The translations under genes were made by a program, and so were the position numbers. DNA of 64,000 nucleotides from an uncultured Roseobacter sp. (GTDB lineage: Bacteria > Pseudomonadota > Alphaproteobacteria > Rhodobacterales > Rhodobacteraceae). The stretch's first letter is position 1, and the number at the start of each line of letters is the position of its first letter. Below the pieces are notes generated by a model. It did no database searches. It saw only the letters and a list, made by a program, of their open reading frames with translations, and was not told where the DNA came from. Of this stretch, positions 18,470-40,810 are shown one piece after another. The stretch spans positions 62,001-126,000 of the forward strand of contig CANMWT010000009.1 of the NCBI GenBank assembly GCA_947501635.1, read 5' to 3'.

Positions 18470-18473
18470 TTTC

Positions 18474-24312: not shown

Positions 24313-24355
24313 TACATATGTATCACTGTCAATCATGAATGGGACAAATGTATCA
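24313..24355. promoter_or_regulatory. Candidate RpiR operator region
   Basis: The 71-base divergent intergenic region holds TACATATGTA (24313-24322), a perfect palindrome, and the heptamer TGTATCA twice (24319-24325 and 24349-24355), exactly 30 bases apart on the same strand. The second copy lies inside the start of the regulator gene. This is a plausible operator for the adjacent RpiR-family regulator controlling both divergent transcripts. Inference. Confidence 0.4.
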
Positions 24356-25222
24356 TCCGCTGTATTGGAACGCCTGAGCGACGAATGGGACGCCTTGACA
24401 CCCGAAGCGCAAAAAGCCGCGCGCTACGTTCTGGAAAACCCCGTCGATGTCGGCGTATCAACCGTGCGCGAGATTGCACAGGCTGCCAATGTCAAACCCA
24501 ACACCTTTGTGCGTATGGCGCGGCAAGCCGGCTTTGAGGGCTACGAAGACTTTCGCGCCCCTTTTCGCGAAGCCATTCGCCAAGGGGCGCTCAGTTTTCC
24601 CGAGCGGGCACGCTGGCTGCAGGATGTCAGCAAATCCGGCAATCTGGGGGCCCTCTATGCCGACATGGCCGAGGGTGCGATCCGCAATCTCGAAGACACA
24701 TTTGCCAATATAGACGCAGAGGCTCTCAAAACTGCAGCCGAAGCGATCTGGCAGTCGCGTCAGGTCTTCACGCTGGGCGTCGGTGTGAACCATTCAAACG
24801 CCCGCAACTTCACCTATCTGGCCTCAACCGGGATGACGCAGTTTCACGCCATCCCGCGGCCCGGTTCCACTGCGGTGGATGATCTTGCCTGGGCCGACGG
24901 CCGGGATGTGTTGATCGCAATGACTTGCCGCCCCTATCGTTCCGAAGTCGTCGAGGCTGTACGCATCGCCCGCACTCAGGGCATGACCATCGTCAGCATC
25001 AGCGACAGTCCGGCCAGCCCGATTATCCGTTCAGCCCACCATGGTTTTATCGTGGCCGCCGACACACCTCAGTTCTTCCCCTCATCGGTGTCGACAATCG
25101 CCCTGCTGGAAACACTGCTAAGCTTTGTGATTGCCGTCGCCTCGGACAAAATTGTCGCGCGGGTCGAGACCTTTCACCGACGCCGGCATCAATTAGGCAT
25201 CTATTCGGAGGAGCCTGAATGA
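24335..25222 (+). CDS. MurR/RpiR-family transcriptional regulator with SIS domain
   Basis: A 295-residue regulator. Residues 1-90 form the RpiR-type helix-turn-helix domain (LTPEAQKAARYVLENPVDVG, STVREIAQAANVKPNTFVRM, AGFEGYEDFRAPFREA). Residues 125-270 are a SIS domain (VFTLGVGVNHSNARNFTYLA, VLIAMTCRPYRSEVVEAVRI, TIVSISDSPASPI) that normally senses a phosphosugar or amino compound. It is divergent from the FAD/GcvT operon, and its stop overlaps the Rieske oxygenase start (ATGA), so the two are co-translated. Probable local regulator of the catabolic cluster. Confidence 0.9.
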   Translation: MNGTNVSSAVLERLSDEWDALTPEAQKAARYVLENPVDVGVSTVREIAQAANVKPNTFVRMARQAGFEGYEDFRAPFREAIRQGALSFPERARWLQDVSKSGNLGALYADMAEGAIRNLEDTFANIDAEALKTAAEAIWQSRQVFTLGVGVNHSNARNFTYLASTGMTQFHAIPRPGSTAVDDLAWADGRDVLIAMTCRPYRSEVVEAVRIARTQGMTIVSISDSPASPIIRSAHHGFIVAADTPQFFPSSVSTIALLETLLSFVIAVASDKIVARVETFHRRRHQLGIYSEEPE

Positions 25223-26307
25223 ACAAAATGTCCCACCCTGTGCGCTCGCTGGATGCGCGATACTACATCGACCCGCAGGTGTTCGACGTTGAAAAAAGAG
25301 GACTTCTTGCAAAAACGTGGCAATTTGCCTGCCATGCCAGCCAACTGGAAAACGCCGGTGACTACGTCGCTTTTGACATGGCCGACGAAAGCCTGTTTTC
25401 CATCAAGGGCCGCGATGGGGTCATCCGCACCTTTTACAACGTGTGCCAACATCGCGCGCACCAACTCGTCTCCGGCTCCGGTTCGACCCGTGTTGTGGTA
25501 TGCCCCTATCATGCCTGGACCTATGAGCTTTCGGGGCAACTGCGCGCGGCACCCAACGCCAAATCGGTCCCGGGCTTTGACGCATCAAGTATTTGTCTGA
25601 CCGAAGTCCGCACAGAGGTGTTTTTGGGGTTCGTCTTTGTCAACCTTGACCGTGACGCCGCCCCGATGGATACGTGGTTTCCCGCTGCCCGCACGGAGTT
25701 GGAAGCCTTTGTCCCGAACTGGTCAGAACTTAAGCCACTGGAATGGGTAGAAATCTCGGAGAATTGCAATTGGAAGGTCTCGGTCGAGAACTATTCGGAG
25801 TGTTATCATTGCAGCCTGAACCATCCGACATTCGCCAGCGGCGTAATCCGACCTGAAACCTATGACATCCAACCGCAAGGCTATTGTCTGCGCCACACGA
25901 CAGAGTGCAACGATCTCAGCCAGATGAGCTACGACATCGAAAGCGGCTTTGAAAACAATCACAAGTATTCGTCGTGGTTCTTGTGGCCCATGTTCTCTTT
26001 TCAGGTTTACCCGGGCAACCTGCTGAACACCTATCACTGGCGGGCCGTCGACACCGACCGTGTCATTGTATGGCGCGGGTGGTATTCGGTTGGCGGATGT
26101 GATGATGAAACGGTTCGCCGCATGGCGCAACAGGATCGCGCAACCACTGTCGAAGAGGACATCCATCTGGTGGAGAGCGTGCAGCGCGGTCTGAAAAGCC
26201 GTGGTTATGTTCCCGGGCCTCTTGTGGTTGACCCCGCCTGTGGCGTGAATTCCGAACACTCAGTCATGCATTTGCAACGCTGGATGCGCGAAGCGATTGA
26301 CGGCTGA
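25219..26307 (+). CDS. Rieske oxygenase alpha subunit, GbcA/stachydrine-demethylase type
   Basis: A 362-residue ring-hydroxylating-type oxygenase. The Rieske [2Fe-2S] motif is CQHRAH, then CPYHAWTYE (C-x-H and C-x2-H). The mononuclear iron motif is ENYSECYHCSLNHP with two His, and the acidic third ligand is probably in EEDIHLVES. The Glu in place of the bridging Asp and the overall pattern resemble glycine-betaine monooxygenase GbcA and proline-betaine (stachydrine) demethylase, which remove one N-methyl as formaldehyde. It is coupled by a 4-base overlap to the RpiR gene and divergent from a DMGDH-like gene that could take the second methyl. No reductase gene adjoins it. Convergent with the BMP transporter operon. 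Confidence 0.88.
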   Translation: MNKMSHPVRSLDARYYIDPQVFDVEKRGLLAKTWQFACHASQLENAGDYVAFDMADESLFSIKGRDGVIRTFYNVCQHRAHQLVSGSGSTRVVVCPYHAWTYELSGQLRAAPNAKSVPGFDASSICLTEVRTEVFLGFVFVNLDRDAAPMDTWFPAARTELEAFVPNWSELKPLEWVEISENCNWKVSVENYSECYHCSLNHPTFASGVIRPETYDIQPQGYCLRHTTECNDLSQMSYDIESGFENNHKYSSWFLWPMFSFQVYPGNLLNTYHWRAVDTDRVIVWRGWYSVGGCDDETVRRMAQQDRATTVEEDIHLVESVQRGLKSRGYVPGPLVVDPACGVNSEHSVMHLQRWMREAIDG

Positions 26308-26335: not shown

Positions 26336-27211
26336 TCAGGCAGAGCGGAGTTTGCGCCGCGAGATCACCACCAGCATCAATATGGTCACAAAGTAGGGCA
26401 AGCTGGACAAAACCTGCGAGGGCAGACCAATGCCCATGGCCTGAGCGGTCAGTTCACCAAGCGACAGGATGCCAAACAGCAAGGCGCCAAAAGCGACGCG
26501 CCCTGTCTGCCAGGTGCCGAAGACGACAAGCGCCAGCGCAATCCAGCCGCGACCTGCAATCATGCCATCAGCCCAAAGAGGTGTGTAAACCGTCGAAGCA
26601 TAGGCCCCCGCTATCCCGCACATTGCGCCGCCAAAGGCGACCGCATAAAGCCGGATCAATGACACAGGATAGCCGATTGCGCGCGCAGCTTCGGGGTTTT
26701 CGCCAACGGCAGTAATGACCAACCCCAGCTTGGTCCGGTTCAATACCCACCAAAGCCCGAAAGTCATGCCGATAGACACCCAGACGACGATATCCTGCGT
26801 CAGCAAGGTCGGCCCTATCAACGGAATTTCAGACAGGCCCAGCAACCCGAGCTTGGGCAGCCCTTGTATCGTCAGACTTTCGTAGGACTTTCCGAAAAGC
26901 GCCGACAGCCCCAGGCCCAGAACTCCGATCGCTAGCCCCGATGCCACCTGATTGGCCTGTACGCCGATCACCAGTGCCGCAAACAGCAGGGCGGTGAGGG
27001 TGCTGACCGCCGCCGCCCCCAGAAATCCCACAAAATGTGATCCCGTATGATAGACGCAGATAAAGGCGATGGCCGCGCCAATCGCCATCATGCCTTCCAG
27101 CCCAAGGTTCAAGAGCCCCGCTTTTTCGACGACCATCTCACCCAGCGCCGCCAGCAGAAGCGGCAGGGCGGCAGCCAAAGTCCCCGCCAGCAGAAACTCC
27201 AGCCCGCTCAT
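26336..27211 (-). CDS. BMP-type ABC transporter permease (NupQ/YufQ-like)
   Basis: A 291-residue permease of the branched-chain/simple-sugar/nucleoside class with about nine hydrophobic segments. Features include LLAALGEMVVEKAGLLNLGL and EGMMAIGAA, the conserved start of this group, and the loop AVGENPEAARAIGYPVSLIR. It is the last gene of the eight-gene minus-strand operon and overlaps the second permease by 4 bases. With it, the two-NBD ATPase and the BMP-family lipoprotein-like binding protein it forms a complete importer of the purine-nucleoside class. The real substrate is likely a purine-like molecule given the neighbouring deaminase. Confidence 0.9.
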   Translation of the reverse strand: MSGLEFLLAGTLAAALPLLLAALGEMVVEKAGLLNLGLEGMMAIGAAIAFICVYHTGSHFVGFLGAAAVSTLTALLFAALVIGVQANQVASGLAIGVLGLGLSALFGKSYESLTIQGLPKLGLLGLSEIPLIGPTLLTQDIVVWVSIGMTFGLWWVLNRTKLGLVITAVGENPEAARAIGYPVSLIRLYAVAFGGAMCGIAGAYASTVYTPLWADGMIAGRGWIALALVVFGTWQTGRVAFGALLFGILSLGELTAQAMGIGLPSQVLSSLPYFVTILMLVVISRRKLRSA

Positions 27212-28278
27212 GCCGGCACCTTTCGGTCAAGTTCGACGCGGTAGCGGATCAGCGTAAAGGTCAGAAGGTAGAAAAACAGCAGCAGACCCTGAAAAACCTC
27301 GACCGCCGCGACCGGCAACCCCGCCGAAACAGTCGCACTGTCGCCGCCGATGTAGATCACAGAGATCAGAAAACTCGACGCAATAATGCCCAGCGGGTTC
27401 AGCCCGCCCACGTACGCCACGATAATCGCGGCATAGCCATAGCCGGACGTGACCGAGCGCTGCAACTGCCCCAGAGGGCCCGCGACCTCGCTCGCGCCTG
27501 CGATGCCGGCGGCCAGTCCGCCGATCCCAAGCCCCAGCCAGACCATACGAGGCGCTGAAAACCCAGCGTAAAGTGCTGCGCGCGGGGCAAGGCCAGCCGT
27601 GCGTAACTGATAGCCCCGGAAGTGATGTTGCATGATAAGATAGGCAAAAACGCTCGCCAGCAGGGAGAAGATCAGCGAAATGTTGGTCCGCGTACCGTCA
27701 AACAAAATAGGCAAGAGTGCGTTATCAGGAAACATCACGGTTTGTGGAAAATTGAACCCGCGCGGATCCTTCCAGGGCCCCAGAAGCAGATAGTTGAGTA
27801 TCTGAACCGCAATAAGCGCCATCATGAGGGTGACAAGGATTTCGGACGCGCCAAAGCGCGTGCGCAAGGCCGCGGCGATCAAGGCATAGACCGTTCCGCC
27901 CAAGGCACCTGCTGCAATCATCGTGGGCAACATCAACGGTAAATCACCCTGCGGGAAATAGACCGGCATTGCAGACGCACAGAGCGCGCCGACGATGAAC
28001 TGGCCCTCTGCACCGATGTTGAACACATTGGCGCGAAACCCGATCGCCAGCCCCTGCGCAATCAGCAAGAGCGGCGCCATCTTCAGCAAAACTTCGGAAA
28101 AACTGTACCAGCTCAGAAAAGGTTTGAGCAGCAGCGCATGTAGGGCTGCACCCGCAGGTTTGCCCAAAGCGGCAAAGAGCACCAGACTGGCCAGACAGGT
28201 CAAGGCCAACGCCAGCACGGGTGATGCAAACATGGCAAGGCGCGAGGCTGCGTCGCGCCGGATAAGACGGAGTTTCAT
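27208..28278 (-). CDS. BMP-type ABC transporter permease (NupP/YufP-like)
   Basis: A 356-residue permease with about nine to ten membrane helices. The conserved coupling and core motifs are APLLLIAQGLAIGFRANVFN followed by IGAEGQFIVGAL, and FGASEILVTLMMALIAVQIL. A G-rich GLGIGGLAAGIAGASEVAG segment lies towards the C-terminus. It overlaps the next permease gene by 4 bases and follows the ATPase gene by 10 bases. Pairs with the 26336-27211 product in the inner membrane. Confidence 0.9.
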   Translation of the reverse strand: MKLRLIRRDAASRLAMFASPVLALALTCLASLVLFAALGKPAGAALHALLLKPFLSWYSFSEVLLKMAPLLLIAQGLAIGFRANVFNIGAEGQFIVGALCASAMPVYFPQGDLPLMLPTMIAAGALGGTVYALIAAALRTRFGASEILVTLMMALIAVQILNYLLLGPWKDPRGFNFPQTVMFPDNALLPILFDGTRTNISLIFSLLASVFAYLIMQHHFRGYQLRTAGLAPRAALYAGFSAPRMVWLGLGIGGLAAGIAGASEVAGPLGQLQRSVTSGYGYAAIIVAYVGGLNPLGIIASSFLISVIYIGGDSATVSAGLPVAAVEVFQGLLLFFYLLTFTLIRYRVELDRKVPA

Positions 28279-28288
28279 AGGCGTGACT

Positions 28289-29788
28289 TCAACTCTGGGC
28301 CCCGATCATGTAGCGGCCAATTTCCTGCGGGGTTGTCTGGGCGGCCTCCAGTGCCGCGGACAAAGTGCCGTGGTTCAGCACATGCAGCTTGCTGCACATC
28401 TCGAAAAGCTCGTCCATCTCCTCGGATATCACAAGGATCGCGCAGCCCTGATCGCGCATGTCAAGCAAGCGGCGGCGGATCGCTGTCGCCGCGCCGATAT
28501 CAACGCCCCATGTTGGCTGTGAAACAAGCATCACATCCGGCTGCAACATGATCTCGCGCCCCAGAATGAACTTTTGCAAATTACCGCCAGACATCGCACC
28601 TGCCTCGGCATCGGGCCCCGGCGTGCGCACGTCAAACGCTTCGATACAATCGCGGGTAAAGGCACGCTCGACCTTTCGTCTGATAAAGCCGCGGCTGAGC
28701 ATGTTGCGCCCATGGGCTGTCAGCAGACTGTTGTCCGCAAGTGACATTTCAGGCACCGCACCGCGCCCCAACCGCTCTTCCGGTACAAAAGAAAATCCCA
28801 GCCTGCGCCGGGCCATGGGCCCAAGGTGACCTGCCTTTTTTCCCATGATTTCGATCATACCGGGGTCTTGCGCACGCGTCTCGCCCGAGACCAGCGCAGC
28901 CAACTCCTGTTGTCCATTGCCCGAGATGCCCGCGATACCGATGATCTCGCCGCTGTGGAGTTTCAGGTCGATACCCTTGAGCGTCGTGCCAAACCGGCTG
29001 GCGCGCGGGTGGCTCAGGCCATTGAGACGTAATCGCTCCTGCCCCGGTGGGCGCGGTGCTGCATGTGCGACATTGGGCATCTCGCGTCCGATCATCAGTT
29101 GCGCCAGTGACCGCGCATCATGCTCGCGCGGGTCCACACGCCCGGTCACTTCACCGCCCCGCAACACGCTGGCAGTGTCGCAAAGCTCGCGTATCTCGTC
29201 CAGCTTGTGCGAAATGAACAGGATTGCCATGCCCTCCGCCTGAAGCTTGCGCAATGTCTCAAACAACCTGCGCGCACTTTGAGGCGGCAGCACAGACGTA
29301 GGCTCGTCAAGGATAAGCAGCTTGGGGTTCAGCAGCAGGCAGCGGATGATTTCCACCCTCTGACGTTCTCCGACCGACAGGCGATGCACCATCGCGTGCG
29401 GATCGACAGACAGCCCGAACTGATCGCCAAGGTCTTGTATCTTCCGCGCCAGCTCCACCGGTCGTCCTGGGATCATCAGCGATACGTTCTGCACCACGCT
29501 CAGCGTCTCGAACAGCGAAAAGTGCTGGAAAACCATTCCGATGCCAAGTGATTGCGCATCGGAAGGACGGGCAAGATGAACCTCTTGCCCCTTCCAGCAG
29601 ATACGTCCTGCATCCGGCTGCTCGACCCCGTAGATGAGTTTCATCAGGGTCGATTTGCCAGCACCGTTTTCGCCCAGAACCGCGTGGATGGACCCTGCGC
29701 GAACGCTTAGGTCTATCTGGCGGTTTGCCTGAACGCTGCCATAACGCTTTGAGACTTTGTCCAGCCTCAGCAGCGCCGGCTGGCTCAT
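28289..29788 (-). CDS. BMP-type ABC transporter ATPase with two nucleotide-binding domains
   Basis: A 499-residue ATPase of the sugar/nucleoside (MglA/NupO/YufO) class with two fused ABC domains. Domain 1 has Walker A VLGENGAGKSTLMKLI, signature RLSVGERQRVEI and Walker B LLILDEPTSVLPP. Domain 2 has the usual degenerate Walker A (GIAGISGNGQQELAAL), signature AMSGGNLQKFILGREI and VSQPTWGVDIGAA. The 4-base overlap with the binding-protein gene indicates coupling. Energises import through the two permeases downstream. Confidence 0.92.
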   Translation of the reverse strand: MSQPALLRLDKVSKRYGSVQANRQIDLSVRAGSIHAVLGENGAGKSTLMKLIYGVEQPDAGRICWKGQEVHLARPSDAQSLGIGMVFQHFSLFETLSVVQNVSLMIPGRPVELARKIQDLGDQFGLSVDPHAMVHRLSVGERQRVEIIRCLLLNPKLLILDEPTSVLPPQSARRLFETLRKLQAEGMAILFISHKLDEIRELCDTASVLRGGEVTGRVDPREHDARSLAQLMIGREMPNVAHAAPRPPGQERLRLNGLSHPRASRFGTTLKGIDLKLHSGEIIGIAGISGNGQQELAALVSGETRAQDPGMIEIMGKKAGHLGPMARRRLGFSFVPEERLGRGAVPEMSLADNSLLTAHGRNMLSRGFIRRKVERAFTRDCIEAFDVRTPGPDAEAGAMSGGNLQKFILGREIMLQPDVMLVSQPTWGVDIGAATAIRRRLLDMRDQGCAILVISEEMDELFEMCSKLHVLNHGTLSAALEAAQTTPQEIGRYMIGAQS

Positions 29789-30879
29789 GAAGGCAGCGGC
29801 GTGGTGACGCCGGCGACATGCCAGTCCATGCCGATGATTTCACCATCAGTCATGGCGACCCCTTCAGCCACACGTTCCGCACCTGATTGATCGGTCAGCG
29901 GGCCTTTGAACACAACGAAGTCACCTGTGGCGATCTCGGCTTCCTTGGCCTTGATCTGTGCGACCATCTCCGCCGGAATGTCGGGGTTCCAGTCGGCGGT
30001 GAAGACCACATCGTCTTCCATGCCCAGCCAGTAGTTCGCGCCCGGGAAATCACCGGCAACATGACCGTCCACAAGCCGTTTGAAATGCGGGCCCCAGTCC
30101 GTACCAACCACGCCGAGGTACTTGGTCGGCGCATAGCTCTTCATGGAAGAGTTCAGGTTGTAAGCGTAGATGCCCGCCTCTTCGGCGACGGCAATCACAG
30201 ACGGCGTGTCCTGCGCGTTCGAGAACAGAATGTCCACATCCTGCGAGATCAAAGCCTTGGCCGCTTCCTGTTCCGACGCGGGGTCAAACCAGCTGTTCAC
30301 CCAGACAACGCTCATGGTGATTTCGGGGTCCACAGACAACGCGCCCAGCATGAAGGCGTTGATCGAGGTGATGAGTTCGGGGATTGCAAATGCGCCAACA
30401 CAGCCGATTTTCTTAGACTTGGTCAGCGATGCGGCGGCCATCCCCATCAGATAGGTGCCCTGCCAGTACTTTGCGGTAAAGGGTGCAAAATTCGGCTCGA
30501 CCATGAAGCCAGAAGCATGGATAAGCGACACATTGCGATTGCGCTTGGCAATCTGAATGCCCCCATTCTGGTATCCGAAAGAGCCCAGCAGCAGCACTTC
30601 GTTGCCCTCGGCGACCAGCCCGTTTGCAATGCGATCCGCATCCGGGCCTTCGGCAATGTTTTCCAGAACCGTCACTTCCAGTTTGTCGCCATAGGCTTCT
30701 TTGACGGTGTTTACGCCTTCCATGAGGGTGTGCGACCAGCCCACATCAGCAATGGGCGACGGCAAGACCACACCCATCTTAAGCACGTCTTGCGCAGAGG
30801 CGCGCATCGGCAGGGCGAGCGCTGTTGTAGCGGCAAGTGAACCTTTCAGAAATTTCCGGCGTTTAAGTGTATCAGACAT
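29785..30879 (-). CDS. BMP-family (PnrA-like) solute-binding protein
   Basis: A 364-residue periplasmic binding protein of the BMP/PnrA (Med) family. The N-terminus MSDTLKRRKFLKGSLAATTA carries a twin-arginine signal, so the protein is probably exported folded. The start of the mature domain, LKMGVVLPSPIADVGWSHTL, is family-typical (G-x-x-D-x-G/S-W region), as is LLLGSFGYQNGGIQIAKRN. Known members bind purine nucleosides or related bases. Overlaps the amidohydrolase gene by 8 bases. Its placement suggests import of a purine-like compound that is processed by the deaminase and oxygenase. Confidence 0.9.
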   Translation of the reverse strand: MSDTLKRRKFLKGSLAATTALALPMRASAQDVLKMGVVLPSPIADVGWSHTLMEGVNTVKEAYGDKLEVTVLENIAEGPDADRIANGLVAEGNEVLLLGSFGYQNGGIQIAKRNRNVSLIHASGFMVEPNFAPFTAKYWQGTYLMGMAAASLTKSKKIGCVGAFAIPELITSINAFMLGALSVDPEITMSVVWVNSWFDPASEQEAAKALISQDVDILFSNAQDTPSVIAVAEEAGIYAYNLNSSMKSYAPTKYLGVVGTDWGPHFKRLVDGHVAGDFPGANYWLGMEDDVVFTADWNPDIPAEMVAQIKAKEAEIATGDFVVFKGPLTDQSGAERVAEGVAMTDGEIIGMDWHVAGVTTPLPS

Positions 30880-32269
30880 GAGTATCCCCGTTGTTGGTGT
30901 TAGGCAGTATGGTGTGAAGTGTTTCTTCGGCTGCAGCGAACAATGCGCCCTCGTCGATCCCCGGGAACTCTCCGTTCCGCCAGACGACGCGGCCGTTAAT
31001 CAATGTCAAATCCGTCGGAGCGCCCACGCCCACCTTTGCCAGAAGGCTTTTGGGATCATGGCGAGTGCCGACGTAGTCAAGCTTGCGGGTATCGATTGCG
31101 AAAAGGTCCGCGGCCATGCCTGGTCGCAGCGCGCCAATGTCGCGACGCCCCAATAGCGACGCGCCGCCTTCGGTTGCGTAGTGCAAAAAACGGTCTGGCA
31201 TCGGCACGCCGTCCTGGCGCGTCGCGGCGACAAGGCATTGCAGCATATAGGCAGAGTGCACGCAGTGCATCAGGTTGGAGTTGTCGTTTGACGCCGCCCC
31301 GTCGCATCCCAGCCCGACGCGCACGCCCAGAGCCTCCATCGCGGGAATATCCGTGACTTCGGCACCGACGAGATACACAGGCTCTGGACAATGGGAAACG
31401 CCGGTACCGTTTGCTGCGAGCGACTTCAACTCTTCGCGCGTCAGTTCCCACCCATGAGCATAGAATGTGTCCGGACCAGCAAAGCCTACGTCGGCGCAGT
31501 AATCAACGGTACGCATGCCGTGCACTTGTTCGATGACCGGGCTTTCGCCCTCACCCACATGGCTGTGCAGGATCACACACTTGTCCCGGGCGAGCGCTAC
31601 AGATTGCTCGAAAGTTTCGCGGTAGCAATTGACCGGCTGACAAGGTGCCACCGCTACCTGCCGCATGGAGAGTGCGGCAGGGTCATGATAGGCGTCTATG
31701 GCACGTTCACAATCCGCGATGAAAGCATCGGTGCTTTCCAGCATCTGATCGGGAATGGTGCTGCCTTCGGACTTGGGCAGTGTATTGCCACCGCGGCCCG
31801 CATGAAACCGCATGCCCAAAAGCTCTGCCGCCTCAAACTGGCGATCGATAATGCGCGAGCCCGCATGGCGTGGAAAGCAATATTGGTGGTCAAAGGCCGT
31901 CGTGCATCCGTGTTTGATCAACTCGGCCATGGCCACCACAGAACTATGGTAAAAGCAGTCTTCTGTCAGGCGCGAGAAAATCGGGTAAATTCGGTCGAGC
32001 CATTCGATGACAGAATAGCGTGTCCAGTCCAGCTCCGCACGGTTGCGCACAAAACACTGGAAAAAGTGATGATGCGTGTTCACCAATCCCGGAAAGACAA
32101 AATGGCCCGCAGCGTCGATAACCTCGCACCCGTCCGGCACGCTGCGCGACAGGTCCGGACCAATGGCCGAGATTGCACCGTTTTCGCAAAGAATATCTTG
32201 CATGCGCAGCACCGGGTCGCTGGCCGAGGTCACGATCGCCTCACAAGACTTTAGCAAGACTGCGCTCAT
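30872..32269 (-). CDS. Amidohydrolase, 8-oxoguanine-deaminase-like (ATZ/TRZ family)
   Basis: A 465-residue metal-dependent aminohydrolase. Metal and catalytic residues are visible in order: HxH in GLVNTHHHFFQCF, His in ILHSHVGEGES, His in FYAHGWELTREELK and Asp in VGLGCDGAASNDNSN. The region HGCTTAFDHQYCFPRHAGSR and the stretch GMRFHAGRGGNTLPKSEG resemble 8-oxoguanine deaminases (Pa0142 type) more than hydroxyatrazine hydrolases; the assignment is from memory. The reaction would deaminate a guanine- or isoguanine-like base to the keto form. It is encoded between the importer and the split oxygenase and overlaps both neighbours (4 and 8 bases), so it probably acts on the same substrate. Confidence 0.82.
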   Translation of the reverse strand: MSAVLLKSCEAIVTSASDPVLRMQDILCENGAISAIGPDLSRSVPDGCEVIDAAGHFVFPGLVNTHHHFFQCFVRNRAELDWTRYSVIEWLDRIYPIFSRLTEDCFYHSSVVAMAELIKHGCTTAFDHQYCFPRHAGSRIIDRQFEAAELLGMRFHAGRGGNTLPKSEGSTIPDQMLESTDAFIADCERAIDAYHDPAALSMRQVAVAPCQPVNCYRETFEQSVALARDKCVILHSHVGEGESPVIEQVHGMRTVDYCADVGFAGPDTFYAHGWELTREELKSLAANGTGVSHCPEPVYLVGAEVTDIPAMEALGVRVGLGCDGAASNDNSNLMHCVHSAYMLQCLVAATRQDGVPMPDRFLHYATEGGASLLGRRDIGALRPGMAADLFAIDTRKLDYVGTRHDPKSLLAKVGVGAPTDLTLINGRVVWRNGEFPGIDEGALFAAAEETLHTILPNTNNGDTHV

Positions 32270-32880
32270 GCCGGGTGCGCCAGTTCATGCAGACGGTGGA
32301 TGCCAGGCATTTCAATAAAACCCGGCAGCGACCGGATCGCGCGCATCCACAGCCGCAAAGATGGATATGCATCCAGCACAACGCCTCCGTCAGGTGCCAG
32401 AGCGGTGTTCGGGAAACATGCGATATCGGCGATCGTGGGCGTTGCGCCGGTCAGAAATCCAACACCATCGAACCGCTGGTCGGTCAGGTGCGCCTCCAGC
32501 TCTCGCAAGGCAGTGACGCCGGATGCGCGCGCAGCGTCGATGTCAGCCTCATAGCCCAGAATGTCATGCAAACGCGCCAGCCCGAGGCTGTCATTCAGAC
32601 CGGACGCAAAGGCCAGCCATTGGTCATCCTGTGGGCTGCGCCATTCCCGCCGGTCCGCCGTCAGATAACGCAGCATATCGGCGCTGTCCGTGAGGACCAG
32701 ATCATCGTCTTGCAAGACAGGTAACGTGCCCTTGGGGTTCAACGCCAGCATTTCGGCCGATTTGTGTTCCCGCGCGGGGTGAAAATTGACGGCACGCAGC
32801 GACAACGGTTTTCCCAGCACCGCAGCCATCAGGCGGATCTTGTAGCAGCTGGCACTAAGCACGTAGTCGTAAAGGATCAT
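32266..32880 (-). CDS. Glutathione S-transferase-like protein (NdmE-like candidate)
   Basis: A 204-residue GST fold. The thioredoxin-like N-terminal domain is MILYDYVLSASCYKIRLMAA with the Ser/Cys-containing active-site loop, then NPKGTLPVLQDDD (cis-Pro) and LTDSADMLRYL. The C-terminal helical domain has FLTGATPTIADIACFP, the conserved N-capping Asp motif. It overlaps the oxygenase catalytic gene (4 bases) and the deaminase gene (4 bases). In the caffeine degrader Pseudomonas putida CBB5 a GST-like protein, NdmE, is a structural part of the NdmCDE N7-demethylase, whose catalytic subunit also lacks a Rieske centre. The same three-part arrangement here suggests a scaffolding rather than detoxifying role. 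Inference. Confidence 0.82.
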   Translation of the reverse strand: MILYDYVLSASCYKIRLMAAVLGKPLSLRAVNFHPAREHKSAEMLALNPKGTLPVLQDDDLVLTDSADMLRYLTADRREWRSPQDDQWLAFASGLNDSLGLARLHDILGYEADIDAARASGVTALRELEAHLTDQRFDGVGFLTGATPTIADIACFPNTALAPDGGVVLDAYPSLRLWMRAIRSLPGFIEMPGIHRLHELAHPA

Positions 32881-33713
32881 GCAGCCACCAATTGCGCACC
32901 GTAGGTGTAGCCGATCTTTTTCAGCCAGCGTCGATAGGCCACCGACGTCATATCCGCCTGCGTCGGCACTTCCATGCCCGGATCAAGCGGCAGCTTTCGC
33001 GGGATCTGGTTTTCAAGGATTGACCTGTCCTGCATAAAGATCAACTGCTGAAAACTCACCATTTCCGCCATGGTCGACGCATCATCATAAAGCGCCATCC
33101 AAGGCCAAACCTCGCACCACTCCTCGGTTAACGGTTGCACGAACAGCGTAATGATATCCCACTCCCCCGGGCGCGGCGGGCAGGTCTTGTAAAGCACCGC
33201 ACAGGTGGGTGCGGGAACTCTGTACATGTATTCCGTTGTGATCCCGCCAGATGCGGACTTGGCAGCCTGGGGTTGAAAGAACTTCACCTTGGTGGCCCAT
33301 ACCTCGTCAACATCTTCAGCGATCCGCACATCGTAACGATCCACTTCTGTATGCGGCTCAGCCCCCAGAATATCGGTATGCACAAAGGGAAAATGCGCGA
33401 TATCAAGAAAATTTTCCACCGCCCGCAGCGGAGAACACTTTACGCGAACAGATCCGACATCTACCAACCGACGCCCCGGCGTGTCTGCCTCGGGAATGGT
33501 AAAAAGGGCACGATTTGGCTGTCCCGGGCTGGTCCAAAGATGGCCAAAACGCTCGGTCACAGTCAGCGGATTTCCGGCGGCGTCGCGCACCCAGCACGCG
33601 CCGTTGTCCCTGCCCAGCGTTATCTTCTTGCCCAAAAGCCATGTTTCACGCGGCGCATCAATGCCCGAGACCATCGCCACGGGATACCAGTGATTGTCCG
33701 TTGCCGCGGTCAT
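32877..33713 (-). CDS. Rieske-oxygenase catalytic subunit lacking the Rieske cluster (NdmC-like)
   Basis: A 278-residue oxygenase subunit with the mononuclear iron domain only. Iron ligands are in ENFLDIAHFPFVH (two His plus bridging Asp) and IFMQDRSILENQ (third ligand Asp). The N-terminal 75 residues follow the beta-strands that flank a Rieske domain (HWYPVAMVSGI, ITLGRDNGACWVRDAAGNP, TERFGHLWTSPG) but the cluster-binding part with C-x-H and C-x2-H is cleanly absent. The adjacent gene supplies exactly that domain. Overlaps of 4 bases on both sides show coupling. The family (VanA/DdmC/Ndm type) performs O- or N-demethylation. NdmC is the closest described precedent. Substrate likely an N-methylated purine-like base. 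Confidence 0.85.
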   Translation of the reverse strand: MTAATDNHWYPVAMVSGIDAPRETWLLGKKITLGRDNGACWVRDAAGNPLTVTERFGHLWTSPGQPNRALFTIPEADTPGRRLVDVGSVRVKCSPLRAVENFLDIAHFPFVHTDILGAEPHTEVDRYDVRIAEDVDEVWATKVKFFQPQAAKSASGGITTEYMYRVPAPTCAVLYKTCPPRPGEWDIITLFVQPLTEEWCEVWPWMALYDDASTMAEMVSFQQLIFMQDRSILENQIPRKLPLDPGMEVPTQADMTSVAYRRWLKKIGYTYGAQLVAA

Positions 33714-34312
33714 GGTGCACTCTCCTCAAGGTCGGATCGCAGCGCCTCAAGCCAGCGCGACACAGCCTTGCGGTCTGCCCCTCGCGCGGCAAGCGCATGC
33801 ACGACGCAATGCGCCGCAGTGCAGGGTTGCAGGGCCAAAGCCACATCAAAGTCTGATCCTATCTCAAGGAAAGTGGACTGCGGCGCGTTAAAATACGCGG
33901 CAATCGCACGCGCAGACCGAGCAACCGGCATTGAACGCACCGGACGGCGCGACGAAACGGCGGGGGGCGCGCCCAAAGGTTTCTGCAATGCGGCCCAGAT
34001 CACACCGTCGGTTTCGGCGCAATCATAGGTCGGCACGCAAATCGTATCTGGCGGTGTCAGTTTGGGATGCGCCGGGATATACGCACAAGAGCCGTTTTCT
34101 GAATATTGCCACCCATGATAGATGCATGACAGAGCATTCCCCCGGACAAACCCGTGCGACAGGCGCATGCCCCGGTGCGGGCAGCGGTCTGACCATGCGC
34201 GAACTTCGCCCGAAGCACTGCGCCAGATCGCGAGTTCCGTGTCTTCGATACGACTTGGAATGACAACACCTAGGGGCAGGTCCTGCTTCAATCCAACAGC
34301 TATCCAATTCAT
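33710..34312 (-). CDS. Stand-alone Rieske [2Fe-2S] protein pairing with the split oxygenase
   Basis: A 200-residue protein whose first 115 residues are a complete Rieske domain: DRCPHRGMRLSHG (C-x-H), CIYHGWQYSENG (C-x2-H) and CAYIPAHP. The remaining 85 residues (from LGAPPAVSS) are a non-catalytic extension containing YFNAPQSTFLEIGSDFDVAL and a CTAAHCVVHA segment; the iron-binding His pair of oxygenases is not present. It is therefore either an electron-transfer subunit for the Rieske-less catalytic protein encoded next, or a truncated oxygenase. NdmD carries such a domain fused to its reductase; here it is free and no reductase gene is nearby. First gene of the eight-gene operon. Confidence 0.85.
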   Translation of the reverse strand: MNWIAVGLKQDLPLGVVIPSRIEDTELAIWRSASGEVRAWSDRCPHRGMRLSHGFVRGNALSCIYHGWQYSENGSCAYIPAHPKLTPPDTICVPTYDCAETDGVIWAALQKPLGAPPAVSSRRPVRSMPVARSARAIAAYFNAPQSTFLEIGSDFDVALALQPCTAAHCVVHALAARGADRKAVSRWLEALRSDLEESAP

Positions 34313-34440: not shown

Positions 34441-34701
34441 TCAAAGAGGCGAACTGCTTGTATCGGTCGTGATAGCCACCCTGTCGACAAGCACGCTTTC
34501 GGGGCCCAGACTCGCGCCAAGTGCCAGCGCATGCAGCATTTCCTCCGACCCTTTCGCCCGCACCTCGATCCCGTCCGCAAGCTCTTGGATTGAGACCTCT
34601 GAAATCCCCAGCTTTTGCGCATGCCGCGCGATCCATTCGGGAAAATCGCGGGTCGCAACGTTGCCGGTCAAAAGAATGGTTGCCGTCGTGCTATCGGACA
34701 T
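34441..34701 (-). CDS. Acylphosphatase-like protein without catalytic residues
   Basis: An 86-residue protein that aligns by eye with acylphosphatases: LLTGNVATRDFPEWIARHAQ corresponds to the G-x-V-Q-G-V-G-F-R loop, and ELADGIEVRAKGSEEMLHAL to the second half, ending GPESVLVDRVAIT. The catalytic Arg of the loop aligns with Pro, and the essential Asn of the second motif is Gln, so it is probably a non-catalytic member. The start at 34701 (MSDST) is preferred to 34722 because the domain begins just after it. It lies 128 bases upstream of the split Rieske operon, same strand. Function unknown. Confidence 0.65.
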   Translation of the reverse strand: MSDSTTATILLTGNVATRDFPEWIARHAQKLGISEVSIQELADGIEVRAKGSEEMLHALALGASLGPESVLVDRVAITTDTSSSPL

Positions 34702-34829
34702 GCCGCCTCGTGTCAGAGCCATCGCCGTTTCGCCGCACAGTATGCGCGGTCCGGACAGGTTTCACAACACGGGCACCTTCCCTGCCCGGCTCAGGTTAGC
34801 ATTCTCCCGCGCAGATTTGGCAGCAGCGC

Positions 34830-37079: not shown

Positions 37080-37795
37080 AACTACCCCCCCGAGAAACAA
37101 TCGAGCAAACAAACGAAGCTTACCATGGATACTGGTACTGCAATGCACACGGCCAAAGCGCATACATTGATACAGGGTCTTCAAATTGGAATTATCACAA
37201 CACCTTAAAGTTTACATGAATTAACAATCTCGAGCAAGTTTTTGCGGATTTTAACGCTAAACCTAACCCTTTGTATTAATCGAATTATCTAGAAACTAAG
37301 CCGCCTGCTCTGCCGGCCTGTCGAATCCTACTTTGGGTTTAGTACAAACGCACGGATTCGATTTCAATGCGACGTATCCGCGAAAAATCACAAGATATGC
37401 CCCCGGCCATTTGCCAGAAAATCCTTGAGATACAAAAGCGTAAACAGGATTAGATATTTGGTGCGATTGTAACAGAGCTTTGTGAAGAGCACGATGATCG
37501 GGCGCTGCAAGGCAGTGCGTCATTAATTGCGAAAATCAAATTGTCAGAACCAGCGCCGTTGTCCGCTCCCGTGGACAGGCTCAACCCATTTTGCGGGTCG
37601 ATTAGCTGCGCCGGTTGAACAAAAGAAAGGGAGGTGTTGCCGGGCACAAAAGCATGATCACTCGAGCGTGCAAAACATGGCATCACGCCGCTTTCCGCTC
37701 GAAATCTCTGAAAATCCAACCTTAAACAAGCCTGTGGCTGGCCACTTTGGAAATGACTGGTGGCGTCACCGGGCCTCAATGAGAGGATTAGACAC
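37080..37795. other. Intergenic region between luxR-like gene and the Gly-rich gene
   Basis: About 700 bases without a convincing gene. The part at 37190-37310 is AT-rich (TTTACATGAATTAACAATC, TTGTATTAATCGAATTATC) and is the likely site of divergent promoters. The ribosome site GAGAGGA of the Gly-rich gene lies at 37781. Short frames here have no coding character that I can see. A long 5' leader for the secretion operon is possible. Confidence 0.5.
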
Positions 37796-40700
37796 ATGTC
37801 TAAGGAAAGAGGTCATAATACGACACAGATGGTGTTCGACGATATTAACGTGGATACCGCAAACATTGATGTAGACGCAGACATCGACATCGAAGAAGCC
37901 GAAGTCGATCTGGATCAACAGCAACAACAGCAAAAGCAGCACACCGACACTGACGTCGATCAGGGGCAAGATCAGGACCAGGGACAGGATCAGGACCAAG
38001 GTCAGGATCAAGACCAGGGGCAGGATCAGGGTCAGCAACAGCAGACCAGCTCCAACGCCCAGCAGCGCAATGGCGGTGATGACAGCAACGACAATTCGAC
38101 GGAAGTGAACATCGACTTTGGCGGGGGTGAATGGATCCCGCGCGATGATGATGACGTCGATATCGATGTCAAAGACGGCTCTGTCGGCAATGTCGTAAAT
38201 GCCGGCGGCGATATCGTTGTTGATCTCGATCCCGGCGACGACGTGAATTTCGGCGACATTCTTGACGATGCGCTGAACGGTGACGGTAACAACACAGGTA
38301 TCGTCAACATTCAGGAAATCGGTCTGGTCGACAATGACGAAATCGGCGATGCCAGTGTCGTCAATGAAGGCCGCTTCAGCAACTCCGGCAGCGCCCATGG
38401 CGGGCTCGCCTACGCCGAAGAAGGCATTGATGCCGAAACCCACTCGGGCGACGGTGGCAGCAACGCCTCCGCAGATGGCGGCAGCGCGACCGGCGGTAAA
38501 GCGTTCGGTGGCAATTCGATGGCCAAAGGCGGCGAAAGCGGTGACAATGACGAAGTTGAATCCGAAGGCGGCGACAGTGGTGACGGCGGCGACGCCGGCG
38601 CAATTGGGTTGGGCCTCGGCCTCGGCATAACGGGTAACAACAGTGACACCGATGGCGGCAGCTCCGGCAAGGCCGACAGCAGCAGTGGCGACACAACCGG
38701 CAATGCCAGCACCGACAACACCACCAAGGGAACCGGCGGTGACAGCGGAAACTCTGACTCCGAAAGTGACGCCAACGACGGAAGCACGACAACCCGCGCG
38801 GACGGCTATGCCGACGGCGGCAAAGGCTATGGCGGTGACGGCGGCGACGGATCCGGTGGTGATGGCGGCGACGGCGGCGACGGCGACGGCGGCAAAGGCA
38901 GCGGTGGCGACGGCGGCGACGGCGGATTCGCAATCGGCGGTCTGGCCGGCGGTGGCGACGGCGGCGACGGCGGTGACGGCGACGGCGGCAAAGCCTCTGG
39001 TGGCTCCGGTGGTAACGGCGGGTCCGGCTCTGGCGGCAGCACAACCACCGGCGACGGCGGCGACGGCGGTCAAGCCTCAGGCGGCGACGGCGACGGTGGC
39101 AAAGGCTACGGCGGCGACGGCGGCGATGGCGGCTCAGGGTCCGGCGGCAGCAGCACAACCGGCGACGGTGGTGATGGCGGTCAAGCCTCGGGCGGCGACG
39201 GCGACGGCGGCAAGGGCTACGGCGGTGACGGCGGCGACGGTGGCGAAGGCACCGGCGGCGAAGCAACCGGCGGCAAGGGCTCTGGCGGCGACGGCGGAGA
39301 TGGCGCACGCGGCGACGGCGGCGACGGCGGCAGTGCCGACGGTGACGGCGGTGACGGAGGCGACAACAACGCCAACTCCAACACCCAAAACACCGGCTCC
39401 AGCGACAATGACGCGGACACCGACAACGACGCTGACACCGACAACGATGCGAACGGAACAGGCGGCGATGCCAATGCGAACAATACCGCAACCGCGACAT
39501 CCGGCGGCGGCCTCGACGACTTCGAGGACGACGAAGAGCTCGCGTCGCAAATCGCAGATGCCGGTGCAGCGACAGCCACATCGGGCAACGGTCCGGCAGA
39601 TGCCGGCGGTGCTGCAGATGCGGGTGGTTCCGCGACAACCGACGGTGACGGCAGCTCGGGCGGCAGCTCGGACGCCAGCGGCGATGCCGGCGACGGCTCC
39701 AACGGCGGTGGCGCAGGCGGCTCAGGCAGCGGCGGCAACGGCGGTAACGGTGCACAGGGTGCAACCGGCTCCGGTGCACAAGGCACTGGCGGCGGCGGCC
39801 TCGGCGGTGCCGGTGCGACAGGTGCCACGGGCACTGGCGGCAGCGGTGACGGTGCCTCCGGCAATGCCGGCGACGGCGCTGGTGCCAATGGTGCCGAAGG
39901 TGGCACCGGCCCAGGTGGTGCCGGCGCATCCGGCGCGACCGGAACCGGCGGCAGCGGCGACGGTGCTGTAGGCAATGCCGGAGACGGCGCGGCGGCAAAC
40001 GGTGCCGCGGGCGGTTCCGGCGACGGTGGCGCAGGCGCTGTCGGTCAGGGCGGCGAGGCCGGCGACGGCACAGGTGCCGCAGGTGCCATGGGAGACGGTG
40101 GCGAAGCGACCGGAACCGGTGGAACCGGCGCTGTTGGTGACGGTGGACTTGGCGGCTCCGGCGACGGTGGCGCAGGTGCAACCGGAGACGCTGGAGACGG
40201 TGCTGCTGGCGCCATGGGCGACGGTGGTGACGCCGACGGTCGTGCGGATGCTCTCAGCGACGTCGACGGCACTGCGGATGCGCAATCCGATACGGGCGAC
40301 GGCGGACTTGCCGATGTCTTCTCGGATGCCTACACCGACGGGTCTGCCGAAAGCATGGCCGAAGCCATTTCCGGCTACGGCGGCGATGCCTCCGGAGATC
40401 AGGATGCGGCCACGAATGCCGGCAACAACACGGGCGGCGCCAATACTGCCTCGTCCGGCGCAACCGGCACAGGCGGTGCTGCCAACACGGTCGGCGGAAC
40501 CACAGGCAACGCCACGGGCGGTATGTCCGAAGGCGGTGCGGCCGACATCGGTGACGTCATCGGCGGCATGGGAGGCACGGCCTCCAATGGTGCCGGCGGT
40601 GCGGCCGATAACGGCTCGTGGGGGTCAAACAACGGTGACGACGGTTATGTCACCGGTGAATCCTACGCATCCGCCGCAGCCGGCGTCGAAACCATGGCGT

Positions 40701-40810
40701 TCAACCAAAGCATCGTCATGGGTGCGAATGTCCTGGGGAATTCGGTCGATATGACTGTCGTCGGCGGCTCCATGAGCTCCAACTACGTTGGCGACGATAA
40801 CGACGCGTAA
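37796..40810 (+). CDS. Giant Gly/Asp-rich repeat protein, probable type I secretion substrate
   Basis: A 1004-residue, extremely acidic and glycine-rich protein. Residues 1-85 have Asp/Ile repeats (NVDTANIDVDADIDIEEAEV) and a Gln/Asp run (repeats of GQDQDQ). Residues 100-200 are Asp/Val-rich. Residues 210-560 are GGDGGDG-type repeats with a 37-residue period visible twice (111 bases in DNA, 39071 and 39182). Residues 580-830 have a second Gly/Ala repeat also of 37 residues (GATGTGGSGDGA, NAGDGA). The C-terminus VETMAFNQSIVMGANVLGNS, then VVGGSMSSNYVGDD, shares a motif with the next gene. No N-terminal signal peptide, as expected for type I export. The start has GAGAGGA upstream. Possible adhesin, matrix or ice-binding-like role; not recognised. 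Confidence 0.75.
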   Translation: MSKERGHNTTQMVFDDINVDTANIDVDADIDIEEAEVDLDQQQQQQKQHTDTDVDQGQDQDQGQDQDQGQDQDQGQDQGQQQQTSSNAQQRNGGDDSNDNSTEVNIDFGGGEWIPRDDDDVDIDVKDGSVGNVVNAGGDIVVDLDPGDDVNFGDILDDALNGDGNNTGIVNIQEIGLVDNDEIGDASVVNEGRFSNSGSAHGGLAYAEEGIDAETHSGDGGSNASADGGSATGGKAFGGNSMAKGGESGDNDEVESEGGDSGDGGDAGAIGLGLGLGITGNNSDTDGGSSGKADSSSGDTTGNASTDNTTKGTGGDSGNSDSESDANDGSTTTRADGYADGGKGYGGDGGDGSGGDGGDGGDGDGGKGSGGDGGDGGFAIGGLAGGGDGGDGGDGDGGKASGGSGGNGGSGSGGSTTTGDGGDGGQASGGDGDGGKGYGGDGGDGGSGSGGSSTTGDGGDGGQASGGDGDGGKGYGGDGGDGGEGTGGEATGGKGSGGDGGDGARGDGGDGGSADGDGGDGGDNNANSNTQNTGSSDNDADTDNDADTDNDANGTGGDANANNTATATSGGGLDDFEDDEELASQIADAGAATATSGNGPADAGGAADAGGSATTDGDGSSGGSSDASGDAGDGSNGGGAGGSGSGGNGGNGAQGATGSGAQGTGGGGLGGAGATGATGTGGSGDGASGNAGDGAGANGAEGGTGPGGAGASGATGTGGSGDGAVGNAGDGAAANGAAGGSGDGGAGAVGQGGEAGDGTGAAGAMGDGGEATGTGGTGAVGDGGLGGSGDGGAGATGDAGDGAAGAMGDGGDADGRADALSDVDGTADAQSDTGDGGLADVFSDAYTDGSAESMAEAISGYGGDASGDQDAATNAGNNTGGANTASSGATGTGGAANTVGGTTGNATGGMSEGGAADIGDVIGGMGGTASNGAGGAADNGSWGSNNGDDGYVTGESYASAAAGVETMAFNQSIVMGANVLGNSVDMTVVGGSMSSNYVGDDNDA

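What the first reader, a model, noticed from the sequence alone, without database searches (positions are those of the whole stretch)
32266..34312. Rieske oxygenase split into a Rieske-less catalytic subunit, a free Rieske protein and a GST-like partner
Three genes with 4-base overlaps encode a Rieske domain alone (DRCPHRG, CIYHGW), an oxygenase catalytic domain whose cluster-binding part is cleanly missing (ENFLDIAHFPFVH, IFMQDRS retained) and a GST-fold protein. The only close precedent I know is NdmC/NdmD/NdmE of Pseudomonas putida CBB5, where NdmC lacks a Rieske centre, NdmD supplies it fused to a reductase and NdmE is GST-like. Here the Rieske domain is free and no reductase is adjacent, so this would be a new arrangement. 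Seen: domains and overlaps. Known: NdmCDE. Inferred: functional equivalence.
Basis: partly seen in the sequence, partly recalled or inferred. Interest (0 to 1): 0.88.

Follow-up and report, generated by a model that had tools for sequence, protein, structure and literature searches.

The report
Split Rieske oxygenase for modified purines
A bacterium related to marine Marivita has a set of neighbouring genes that seem to import and break down a modified purine, probably a methylated guanine, using an oxygenase whose electron-carrying and catalytic halves are separate proteins partnered by a third; relatives are common in alphaproteobacteria, but I found no description of this free-Rieske form.

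Summary
Three overlapping genes encode a free Rieske protein (RSK), a catalytic subunit without a Rieske cluster (CAT) and a GST-like protein, followed by a deaminase and a BMP-type ABC transporter. It is a conserved module: all 80 loci kept (of 459) carry RSK, CAT and GST, 79 the deaminase, none an adjacent VanB/NdmD-type reductase. CAT is 43% identical to an NdmC-type protein encoded beside an NdmD-type fusion and a GST. The split is not a clean cut: CAT aligns end to end with full-length Rieske oxygenases apart from one gapped region of about 50 residues holding the cluster ligands, and RSK seems to carry a shrunken remnant of the catalytic domain. The two look like reciprocally degenerate copies of one oxygenase. 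Some related loci also hold guanine or 8-oxoguanine deaminases. Best reading: N-demethylation of an imported methylated purine, probably a methylguanine, driven by a non-dedicated reductase; the substrate is inferred. NdmCDE is known and wider occurrence of such clusters has been noted, so this is a new variant of a known kind.

The parts
33710..34312 (-). RSK: free Rieske protein, 200 aa; complete Rieske domain (C44, H46, C63, H66) plus a C-terminal ~80 aa stretch read as a shrunken catalytic-domain remnant without iron ligands
32877..33713 (-). CAT: Rieske-less catalytic subunit, 278 aa; keeps the Rieske-barrel N-terminus and the 2-His-1-Asp iron site (H107, H112, D229; D104), lacks the ~50-residue cluster-binding part
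   Evidence: the roles of the residues are recalled family knowledge
32266..32880 (-). GST: NdmE-like GST-fold protein, 204 aa, probable scaffold (role inferred)
30872..32269 (-). DEAM: amidohydrolase; best family 8-oxoguanine deaminase (373 bits, below the curated 532-bit cut-off), predicted to deaminate the modified purine
29785..30879 (-). BMP/PnrA-type substrate-binding protein of an ABC transporter
28289..29788 (-). ABC transporter ATP-binding protein
   Evidence: annotated homologue in pRL10
27208..28278 (-). ABC transporter permease 1
26336..27211 (-). ABC transporter permease 2
34441..34722 (-). acylphosphatase-like ORF upstream of RSK on the same strand; a match lies at this place in 71 of 80 relatives; role unknown

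Best explanation
The locus is a purine-uptake and catabolism operon built round a split Rieske oxygenase of the NdmC family. Shown by sequence: RSK has the Rieske ligands, CAT the mononuclear iron ligands, and a GST-fold protein is encoded with them in all 80 kept loci and 40 of 41 survey loci. Inferred: RSK docks on CAT in place of the missing cluster-binding part, with the GST as clamp (as proposed for NdmE), and passes electrons from a non-dedicated cellular reductase to the CAT iron, which oxidises an N-methyl group and releases formaldehyde. Inferred: the BMP-type ABC system imports a methylated purine base or nucleoside, the 8-oxoguanine-deaminase-like enzyme removes the exocyclic amine and CAT-RSK-GST the methyl group, so that for example 7-methylguanine becomes 7-methylxanthine and then xanthine, which the host's xanthine dehydrogenase can oxidise. 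Evolution, supported but not proven: RSK and CAT each arose once, as two copies of one full-length oxygenase that lost complementary parts; the free Rieske form is probably older than the NdmD fusion.
For: Domains and ligands. Conserved module: of 80 kept loci, RSK, CAT and GST in 80, DEAM in 79, BMP in 78, a VanB/NdmD-type reductase in 0. Kinship with the NdmC type: 43% identity, neighbours NdmD-type fusion and GST, one clade. Purine context: ten amidohydrolases from eight related loci were scanned; guanine deaminase above cut-off in L208, L120 and L121 and just below it in L210 and L212; 8-oxoguanine deaminase above cut-off in L096, L196 and L212. Full-length oxygenases 39-40% like one beside hpxO in L094 lie in L203 and L208; hpxO in L094 is above its cut-off. 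The host has guanine deaminase and xanthine dehydrogenase elsewhere, both above cut-off, so DEAM need not be the housekeeping guanine deaminase and xanthine has an outlet. Reciprocal degeneration: CAT aligns 5-273 with full-length oxygenases with 48 gap columns in one region, broken by four aligned residues; RSK aligns 1-137; its model reaches query-normalised TM 0.78-0.83 against the 24 best chains, all full-length SxtT or GxtA, more than residues 1-137 alone (at most 0.69) could give; the RSK C-terminal profile scores 38.0 against the CAT catalytic profile, 30 column-shuffled controls 7.0-17.1. Single clades.
Against: No substrate, complex or activity is shown. Relatives named HpxD are annotated as ring hydroxylases, so CAT could be one. 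DEAM falls well below the 8-oxoguanine deaminase cut-off. Only 19 of 41 survey loci have a deaminase match in the stretch, and 1 of the 10 with an NdmD-type fusion, so the deaminase link is not general. NdmA and NdmB were not looked for by name. L095 has a CAT without partners in the stretch, and no Rieske match was found on its plasmid (an empty answer without positive control). The CAT model is moderate (pLDDT 71; residues 108-123 and 226-250, which hold iron ligands, under 50). Alignments of RSK with full-length oxygenases stop at residue 137 or 141, and a second alignment further on is worthless (score 15.7, 0.2%); the link of the RSK C-terminus appears only against the CAT set, over 38 columns at 80% probability. 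Foldseek matches of RSK have rmsd of 5.3-6.8 angstrom (24 best).
Confidence: 0.6

Rival explanations
1. CAT-RSK-GST is a purine ring hydroxylase, not a demethylase: a molybdenum-free enzyme that turns guanine (or a derivative) into 8-oxoguanine, which the 8-oxoguanine-deaminase-like enzyme converts to urate.
For: Distant relatives of CAT on plasmids (28-30% identical) are annotated HpxD, molybdenum-cofactor-independent xanthine hydroxylase; DEAM is closest to 8-oxoguanine deaminase in NCBIfam and the PDB; 8-oxoguanine deaminases above cut-off lie in related loci L096, L196 and L212.
Against: The one characterised Rieske-less relative I know, NdmC, is an N7-demethylase (PMC4408171, passages); the host already has guanine deaminase and xanthine dehydrogenase, which makes such a bypass redundant; other relatives lie near guanine deaminase instead.
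Confidence: 0.2
2. RSK is an ordinary Rieske ferredoxin that happens to be next to a degenerate, inactive oxygenase subunit; the trio is not a working split enzyme.
For: RSK is a stand-alone Rieske protein; no VanB/NdmD-type reductase is adjacent; CAT has lost its cluster.
Against: RSK matches oxygenase Rieske domains better than ferredoxins (97 bits to SxtT, 34 bits to the best ferredoxin chain); the CAT iron ligands are kept in 63 of 63 rows; the genes stay together in 80 kept loci, mostly with 4-base overlaps.
Confidence: 0.05
3. The system is a split demethylase for a non-purine nitrogen compound (for example a methylated pyrimidine, pterin or alkaloid) that also carries a hydrolysable amine.
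For: DEAM belongs to a broad amidohydrolase group; in L212 the second CAT sits beside an amidohydrolase whose best families are N-ethylammeline chlorohydrolase and 5'-deoxyadenosine deaminase, below cut-off; I know of no rule that BMP-type transporters are purine-specific.
Against: Several relatives lie near guanine or 8-oxoguanine deaminases; the characterised NdmC acts on a purine.
Confidence: 0.15

Closest known systems
NdmCDE, N7-demethylase of 7-methylxanthine, Pseudomonas putida CBB5 (PMC4408171, passages; PMC13237722, part 1 of 2 of the text; original paper Summers 2013 not held, recalled)
   Same: Rieske-less catalytic subunit, Rieske centre on another protein, GST-like partner (essential in NdmCDE); purine substrate there, purine-like context here
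   Different: Here the Rieske protein is free, no such reductase is adjacent, and a BMP-type ABC transporter and an 8-oxoguanine-deaminase-like enzyme are in the gene set
Paracoccus alcaliphilus plasmid locus L096 (RSK, CAT, GST, separate VanB-type reductase, ABC transporter, acylphosphatase, 8-oxoguanine deaminase)
   Same: Free Rieske protein and a similar gene set
   Different: Has its own unfused reductase and a deaminase above the 8-oxoguanine deaminase cut-off
HpxD-type full-length Rieske oxygenases (xanthine hydroxylases by record annotation)
   Same: Full-length relatives (28-30% identical to CAT); a profile of eight full-length oxygenases, one beside hpxO, aligns with both halves
   Different: Both iron centres in one chain; named as ring hydroxylases
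SxtT and GxtA, best solved structures for both halves
   Same: Best matches by sequence and fold to RSK and to CAT
   Different: Full-length enzymes with another substrate class
Rhizobium johnstonii 3841 plasmid pRL10 locus RL_RS29065-RL_RS29105
   Same: Gene order acylphosphatase, RSK, CAT, GST, amidohydrolase, BMP, ATPase, two permeases
   Different: CAT 70% identical; a LysR-type regulator lies just upstream there

Membership tests
NdmCDE-type split Rieske oxygenase | catalytic subunit with the 2-His-1-carboxylate iron site but no Rieske cluster | tested here: met
NdmCDE-type split Rieske oxygenase | GST-like third component encoded with the catalytic subunit | tested here: met
   GST present in 80 of 80 kept loci and 40 of 41 survey loci
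NdmCDE-type split Rieske oxygenase | Rieske centre fused to the reductase (NdmD) | tested here: not met
   RSK is 200 aa and free; a VanB/NdmD-type reductase lies in 0 of 80 kept loci
NdmCDE-type split Rieske oxygenase | direct homology to NdmC, NdmD and NdmE of strain CBB5 | tested here: inconclusive
   not compared directly; 43% identity to an NdmC-type protein with NdmD-type and GST neighbours
NdmCDE-type split Rieske oxygenase | N7-demethylation of 7-methylxanthine | not testable with these tools
   needs an enzyme assay
Ordinary (full-length) Rieske oxygenase alpha subunit | Rieske cluster and mononuclear iron in one polypeptide | tested here: not met
Rieske ferredoxin of a three-component dioxygenase (for RSK) | closest to ferredoxin-type Rieske proteins | tested here: not met
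   97 bits to SxtT against 34 bits to the best ferredoxin chain among the 60 shown of 68
8-oxoguanine deaminase (for DEAM) | score above the NCBIfam NF006055 cut-off of 532 bits | tested here: not met
   373.4 bits; still its best family

The most novel reading that the evidence does not exclude
A previously undescribed bacterial route for methylguanine released by RNA turnover (7-methylguanine first candidate), carried out by a Rieske oxygenase that evolved by duplication and reciprocal loss: one copy became a pure electron carrier, the other a pure catalyst, both keeping fossil remains of the lost half, with a GST as the clamp. The free Rieske protein draws electrons from a general cellular reductase and in some genomes serves two different catalytic subunits.
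Probability: 0.3. Interest if true: 0.8.

Novelty: new variant of a known kind. Interest (0 to 1): 0.6.

Why it matters
If right, it shows how a two-centre enzyme can be divided by complementary decay of duplicate copies rather than by cutting a gene, and makes the NdmCDE oddity one derived member of a wide family. With Rieske and catalytic subunits as separate proteins, electron transfer between the two centres could be studied with the parts mixed at will, which a one-chain oxygenase does not allow. It also predicts substrate, transporter and pathway for operons found in many rhizobia and Rhodobacterales (record titles), possibly for methylated guanine, a product of RNA turnover.

Tried and rejected
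Direct comparison with CBB5 NdmC/D/E was not made; a P. putida plasmid locus with that architecture served instead. A dedicated reductase in the host: the VanB-type query found one place, a 1069-aa ORF with 4Fe-4S, DmmA-like and Fer2 domains (reductive-dehalogenase-like is my reading by eye). Of 2 PF00175 places, one is a ferric-reductase-type membrane protein and one a 282-aa protein with only that domain. Of 10 Fer2 places, one is that 1069-aa ORF, one a lone ferredoxin-like protein, and the other eight have the domains of other enzymes: NuoG type, xanthine-dehydrogenase types, RACo type and molybdopterin type. One FAD-type ferredoxin reductase exists. None is linked to this operon. The PF00175 search did not report the 1069-aa ORF, so such searches can miss reductases. 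Riboswitch: at gathering score Rfam found one tRNA in the window and two tRNAs in eight loci. A first profile comparison of the RSK C-terminus (124 rows) held full-length oxygenases from L205 and L206; I discarded it and repeated it without them and without L209_10767 (121 rows). Paper searches found no description of this operon (open-licence papers only, mostly seen as listings). Fusion polarity was judged by eye on a tree of 112 columns. The CAT tree leaves L118 and L121 unresolved at the base and warns of long branches; the RSK tree puts them near NdmD fusions.
Full report
WHAT IS THERE. On the minus strand, ORFs at 33710-34312 (RSK), 32877-33713 (CAT), 32266-32880 (GST), 30872-32269 (DEAM), 29785-30879 (BMP), 28289-29788 (ATPase), 27208-28278 and 26336-27211 (permeases) follow each other with overlaps or small gaps. 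An acylphosphatase-like ORF lies upstream at 34441-34722. Pfam gives Rieske on RSK, VanA_C on CAT (no Rieske), GST_N and GST_C on GST, Amidohydro_1 on DEAM and Bmp on the binding protein. NCBIfam has no family for CAT at E 0.01, and the best family for DEAM is 8-oxoguanine deaminase at 373 bits, under the 532-bit cut-off.

CONSERVATION. A protein-guided scan of genome contigs matched 471 stretches, 459 with a relative of CAT; the best 80 were kept. All 80 hold RSK, CAT and GST; 79 DEAM; 78 BMP; 77 the ATPase; 77 and 78 the two permeases; 71 an acylphosphatase match, which in 64 of the 71 ends 150-249 bases before RSK. The missing DEAM, BMP, ATPase and permease matches are all in L041, L050 and L082, whose held stretches are 10.7 kb or less. 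None of the 80 has a VanB/NdmD-type reductase match in the stretch. With starts picked by a script, RSK and CAT overlap by 4 bases in 71 of 80, CAT and GST in 76 of 80. The kept set is the best-scoring part of 459 and says little about the rest; the loci are related, not independent. In kin of the host the module is patchy: of 59 genomes 12 had a match at E 0.001, but only the own genome and G003 a strong one; of 390 genomes of the order 23 at E 1e-30; of 385 of the class 10 at E 1e-20, two of them weak matches in frames of 377 and 427 aa. The counts include the own genome.

ARCHITECTURES. I surveyed 43 further loci (L094-L099, L114-L121, L191-L219), taken from plasmid hits and from most, not all, places (left out: G368, G369, G590, G639, G724, G747, G788, G830, G879, G886, G904 and G003; also outside are L093, the same place as L079, and L100, a full-length oxygenase on a plasmid). 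41 have a split CAT; L205 and L206 have only full-length oxygenases. Of the 41: 10 have an NdmD-type Rieske-reductase fusion; L192 has Rieske plus Fer2 in one 418-aa ORF, with no NAD-binding match in Pfam; 4 have a free Rieske with a separate reductase (L096, L204, L209, L215); L099 has a free Rieske and the reductase fused to CAT; L095 has CAT alone; 24 have a Rieske protein not fused to a reductase and no reductase in the stretch (in L195 it ends a 595-aa open frame that I did not resolve). Nine of the 41 carry two CATs over 150 bits with one Rieske protein (L097, L120, L193, L194, L196, L197, L212, L213, L214), four of the nine with an NdmD-type fusion. In L212 one CAT lies between an 8-oxoguanine deaminase and a guanine-deaminase-type enzyme, the other beside a different amidohydrolase. 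This suggests one electron-transfer module serving two catalysts; copies elsewhere in those genomes were not sought. A deaminase match is in 19 of the 41, but in only 1 of the 10 with an NdmD-type fusion.

RECIPROCAL DEGENERATION. Against a profile of eight full-length oxygenases (A3) CAT aligns from residue 5 to 273 with one gapped region (48 gap columns broken by four aligned residues) that contains all four cluster ligands; it keeps the barrel strands, modelled with block means of 91-97 pLDDT in residues 11-70, while the whole model has 71. CAT is thus a full oxygenase with an internal deletion, not the second half of a cut gene. RSK aligns over residues 1-137. Its model (pLDDT 95.5, pTM 0.90) matches SxtT/GxtA chains with query-normalised TM 0.78-0.83 in the 24 best, over 264-279 columns, rmsd 5.3-6.8 angstrom; residues 1-137 alone could give at most 0.69. 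A profile of the RSK C-terminus from 121 rows (free and fused) scores 38.0 (probability 80%, E 1.5e-5, 38 columns) against the CAT catalytic profile; 30 column-shuffled controls score 7.0 to 17.1. The matched stretch is the hairpin and the start of the helix before the aspartate ligand, and the pattern is seen by eye in free and fused forms. Against this, alignments with full-length oxygenases stop at residue 137 or 141, and a second one beyond is worthless (score 15.7, 0.2%). RSK (53 rows, 99/91, against 19 full-length oxygenases) and CAT (63 rows, 99/96, against 8) are each one clade. In the RSK tree the fusions lie inside free forms, so a free ancestor looks likelier; the tree has 112 columns and this was not formally tested.

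FUNCTION. The ligands of both centres are invariant in the rows used, so activity is expected. The best solved relatives of both halves are the same, SxtT/GxtA, then NdmA. NdmCDE, the one characterised Rieske-less precedent I know, demethylates 7-methylxanthine, and NdmE is postulated to align the Rieske cluster of NdmD with NdmC (PMC4408171, passages); its role is called structural and the complex unsolved in PMC13237722 (part 1 of 2). The GSTs share a signature across architectures (R16 and P54 in 123 of 123 rows), with the usual glutathione-contact pair less strictly kept (S66 in 89 of 123). Of ten amidohydrolases scanned from eight related loci, three pass the guanine deaminase cut-off, two fall just below it and three pass the 8-oxoguanine deaminase cut-off. 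Full-length oxygenases 39-40% like the one beside hpxO in L094 occur in L203 and L208 (HpxD-like is my label, no such model is among their NCBIfam matches). A xanthine riboswitch study (PMC7373994, passages) links Rieske oxygenases, 8-hydroxyguanine and guanine deaminases and purine oxidation; no such riboswitch was found here. The host has guanine deaminase and xanthine dehydrogenase genes above cut-off. I infer a methylated purine, most likely a methylguanine, as substrate; 7-methylguanine is first candidate because NdmC acts at N7. That last step is inference only.

ELECTRONS. No VanB/NdmD-type reductase is in the operon. Host candidates are a FAD-type ferredoxin reductase, a 282-aa protein with an NAD-binding domain, the 1069-aa multidomain ORF and a small ferredoxin-like protein. 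The other eight Fer2 places belong to other enzymes. Nothing ties any of them to RSK.

NOVELTY. Split oxygenase/GST clusters were reported as broader than NdmCDE (Summers 2013 abstract, recalled), and homologues in Sinorhizobium and Mesorhizobium are mentioned in the 2015 review. What I did not find in print (open-licence papers only, mostly listings) is the free-Rieske form without reductase, the catalytic-domain remnant in RSK, one Rieske protein beside two catalysts, and the deaminase and transporter context.

Noticed in passing
window 25219-26307 (+): A second, complete Rieske oxygenase (362 aa; best NCBIfam match glycine betaine monooxygenase GbcA, 151 bits against a cut-off of 670) follows an ORF at 24335-25222 that looks like an RpiR-type regulator (by eye), convergent with the operon.
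   Followed up: partly
window 17171-24263 (-): A run of ORFs that look (by eye, no family search) like an 818-aa dimethylglycine/sarcosine-dehydrogenase-type protein, an alcohol dehydrogenase, two enolase-superfamily proteins and a class-III aminotransferase; they may go with the GbcA-like oxygenase rather than with the purine operon.
   Followed up: no
window 34441-34722 (-): Acylphosphatase-like ORF with a match at the same place in 71 of 80 relatives and in the Paracoccus locus L096; its role in a purine operon is unexplained.
   Followed up: partly
window 37760-40810 (+): 1016-aa ORF made largely of Gly/Asp-rich repeats, followed by a 677-aa ORF at 40903-42936; unusual low-complexity protein.
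   Followed up: no
L113 4684-7893 (-), host genome contig C7: 1069-aa ORF with 4Fe-4S, DmmA-like and Fer2 domains, reductive-dehalogenase-like by eye; holds the only VanB-type reductase match of the genome.
   Followed up: partly
L209 2622-13179: A locus with two split-oxygenase sets (one CAT under 150 bits but with VanA_C), a separate reductase and two full-length oxygenases side by side.
   Followed up: partly
L192 5104-6360 (-): A Rieske domain and a plant-type Fer2 domain in one 418-aa ORF, with no NAD-binding match: another possible electron-transfer layout.
   Followed up: partly
L205 and L206: Full-length oxygenases next to BMP-type transporters that are the nearest full-length rows to the split CAT clade (98/96).
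   Followed up: partly
L095 8914-9780: Orphan CAT on a Roseicitreum plasmid with no Rieske or GST match in the stretch; no Rieske match was found on that plasmid (no positive control).
   Followed up: partly
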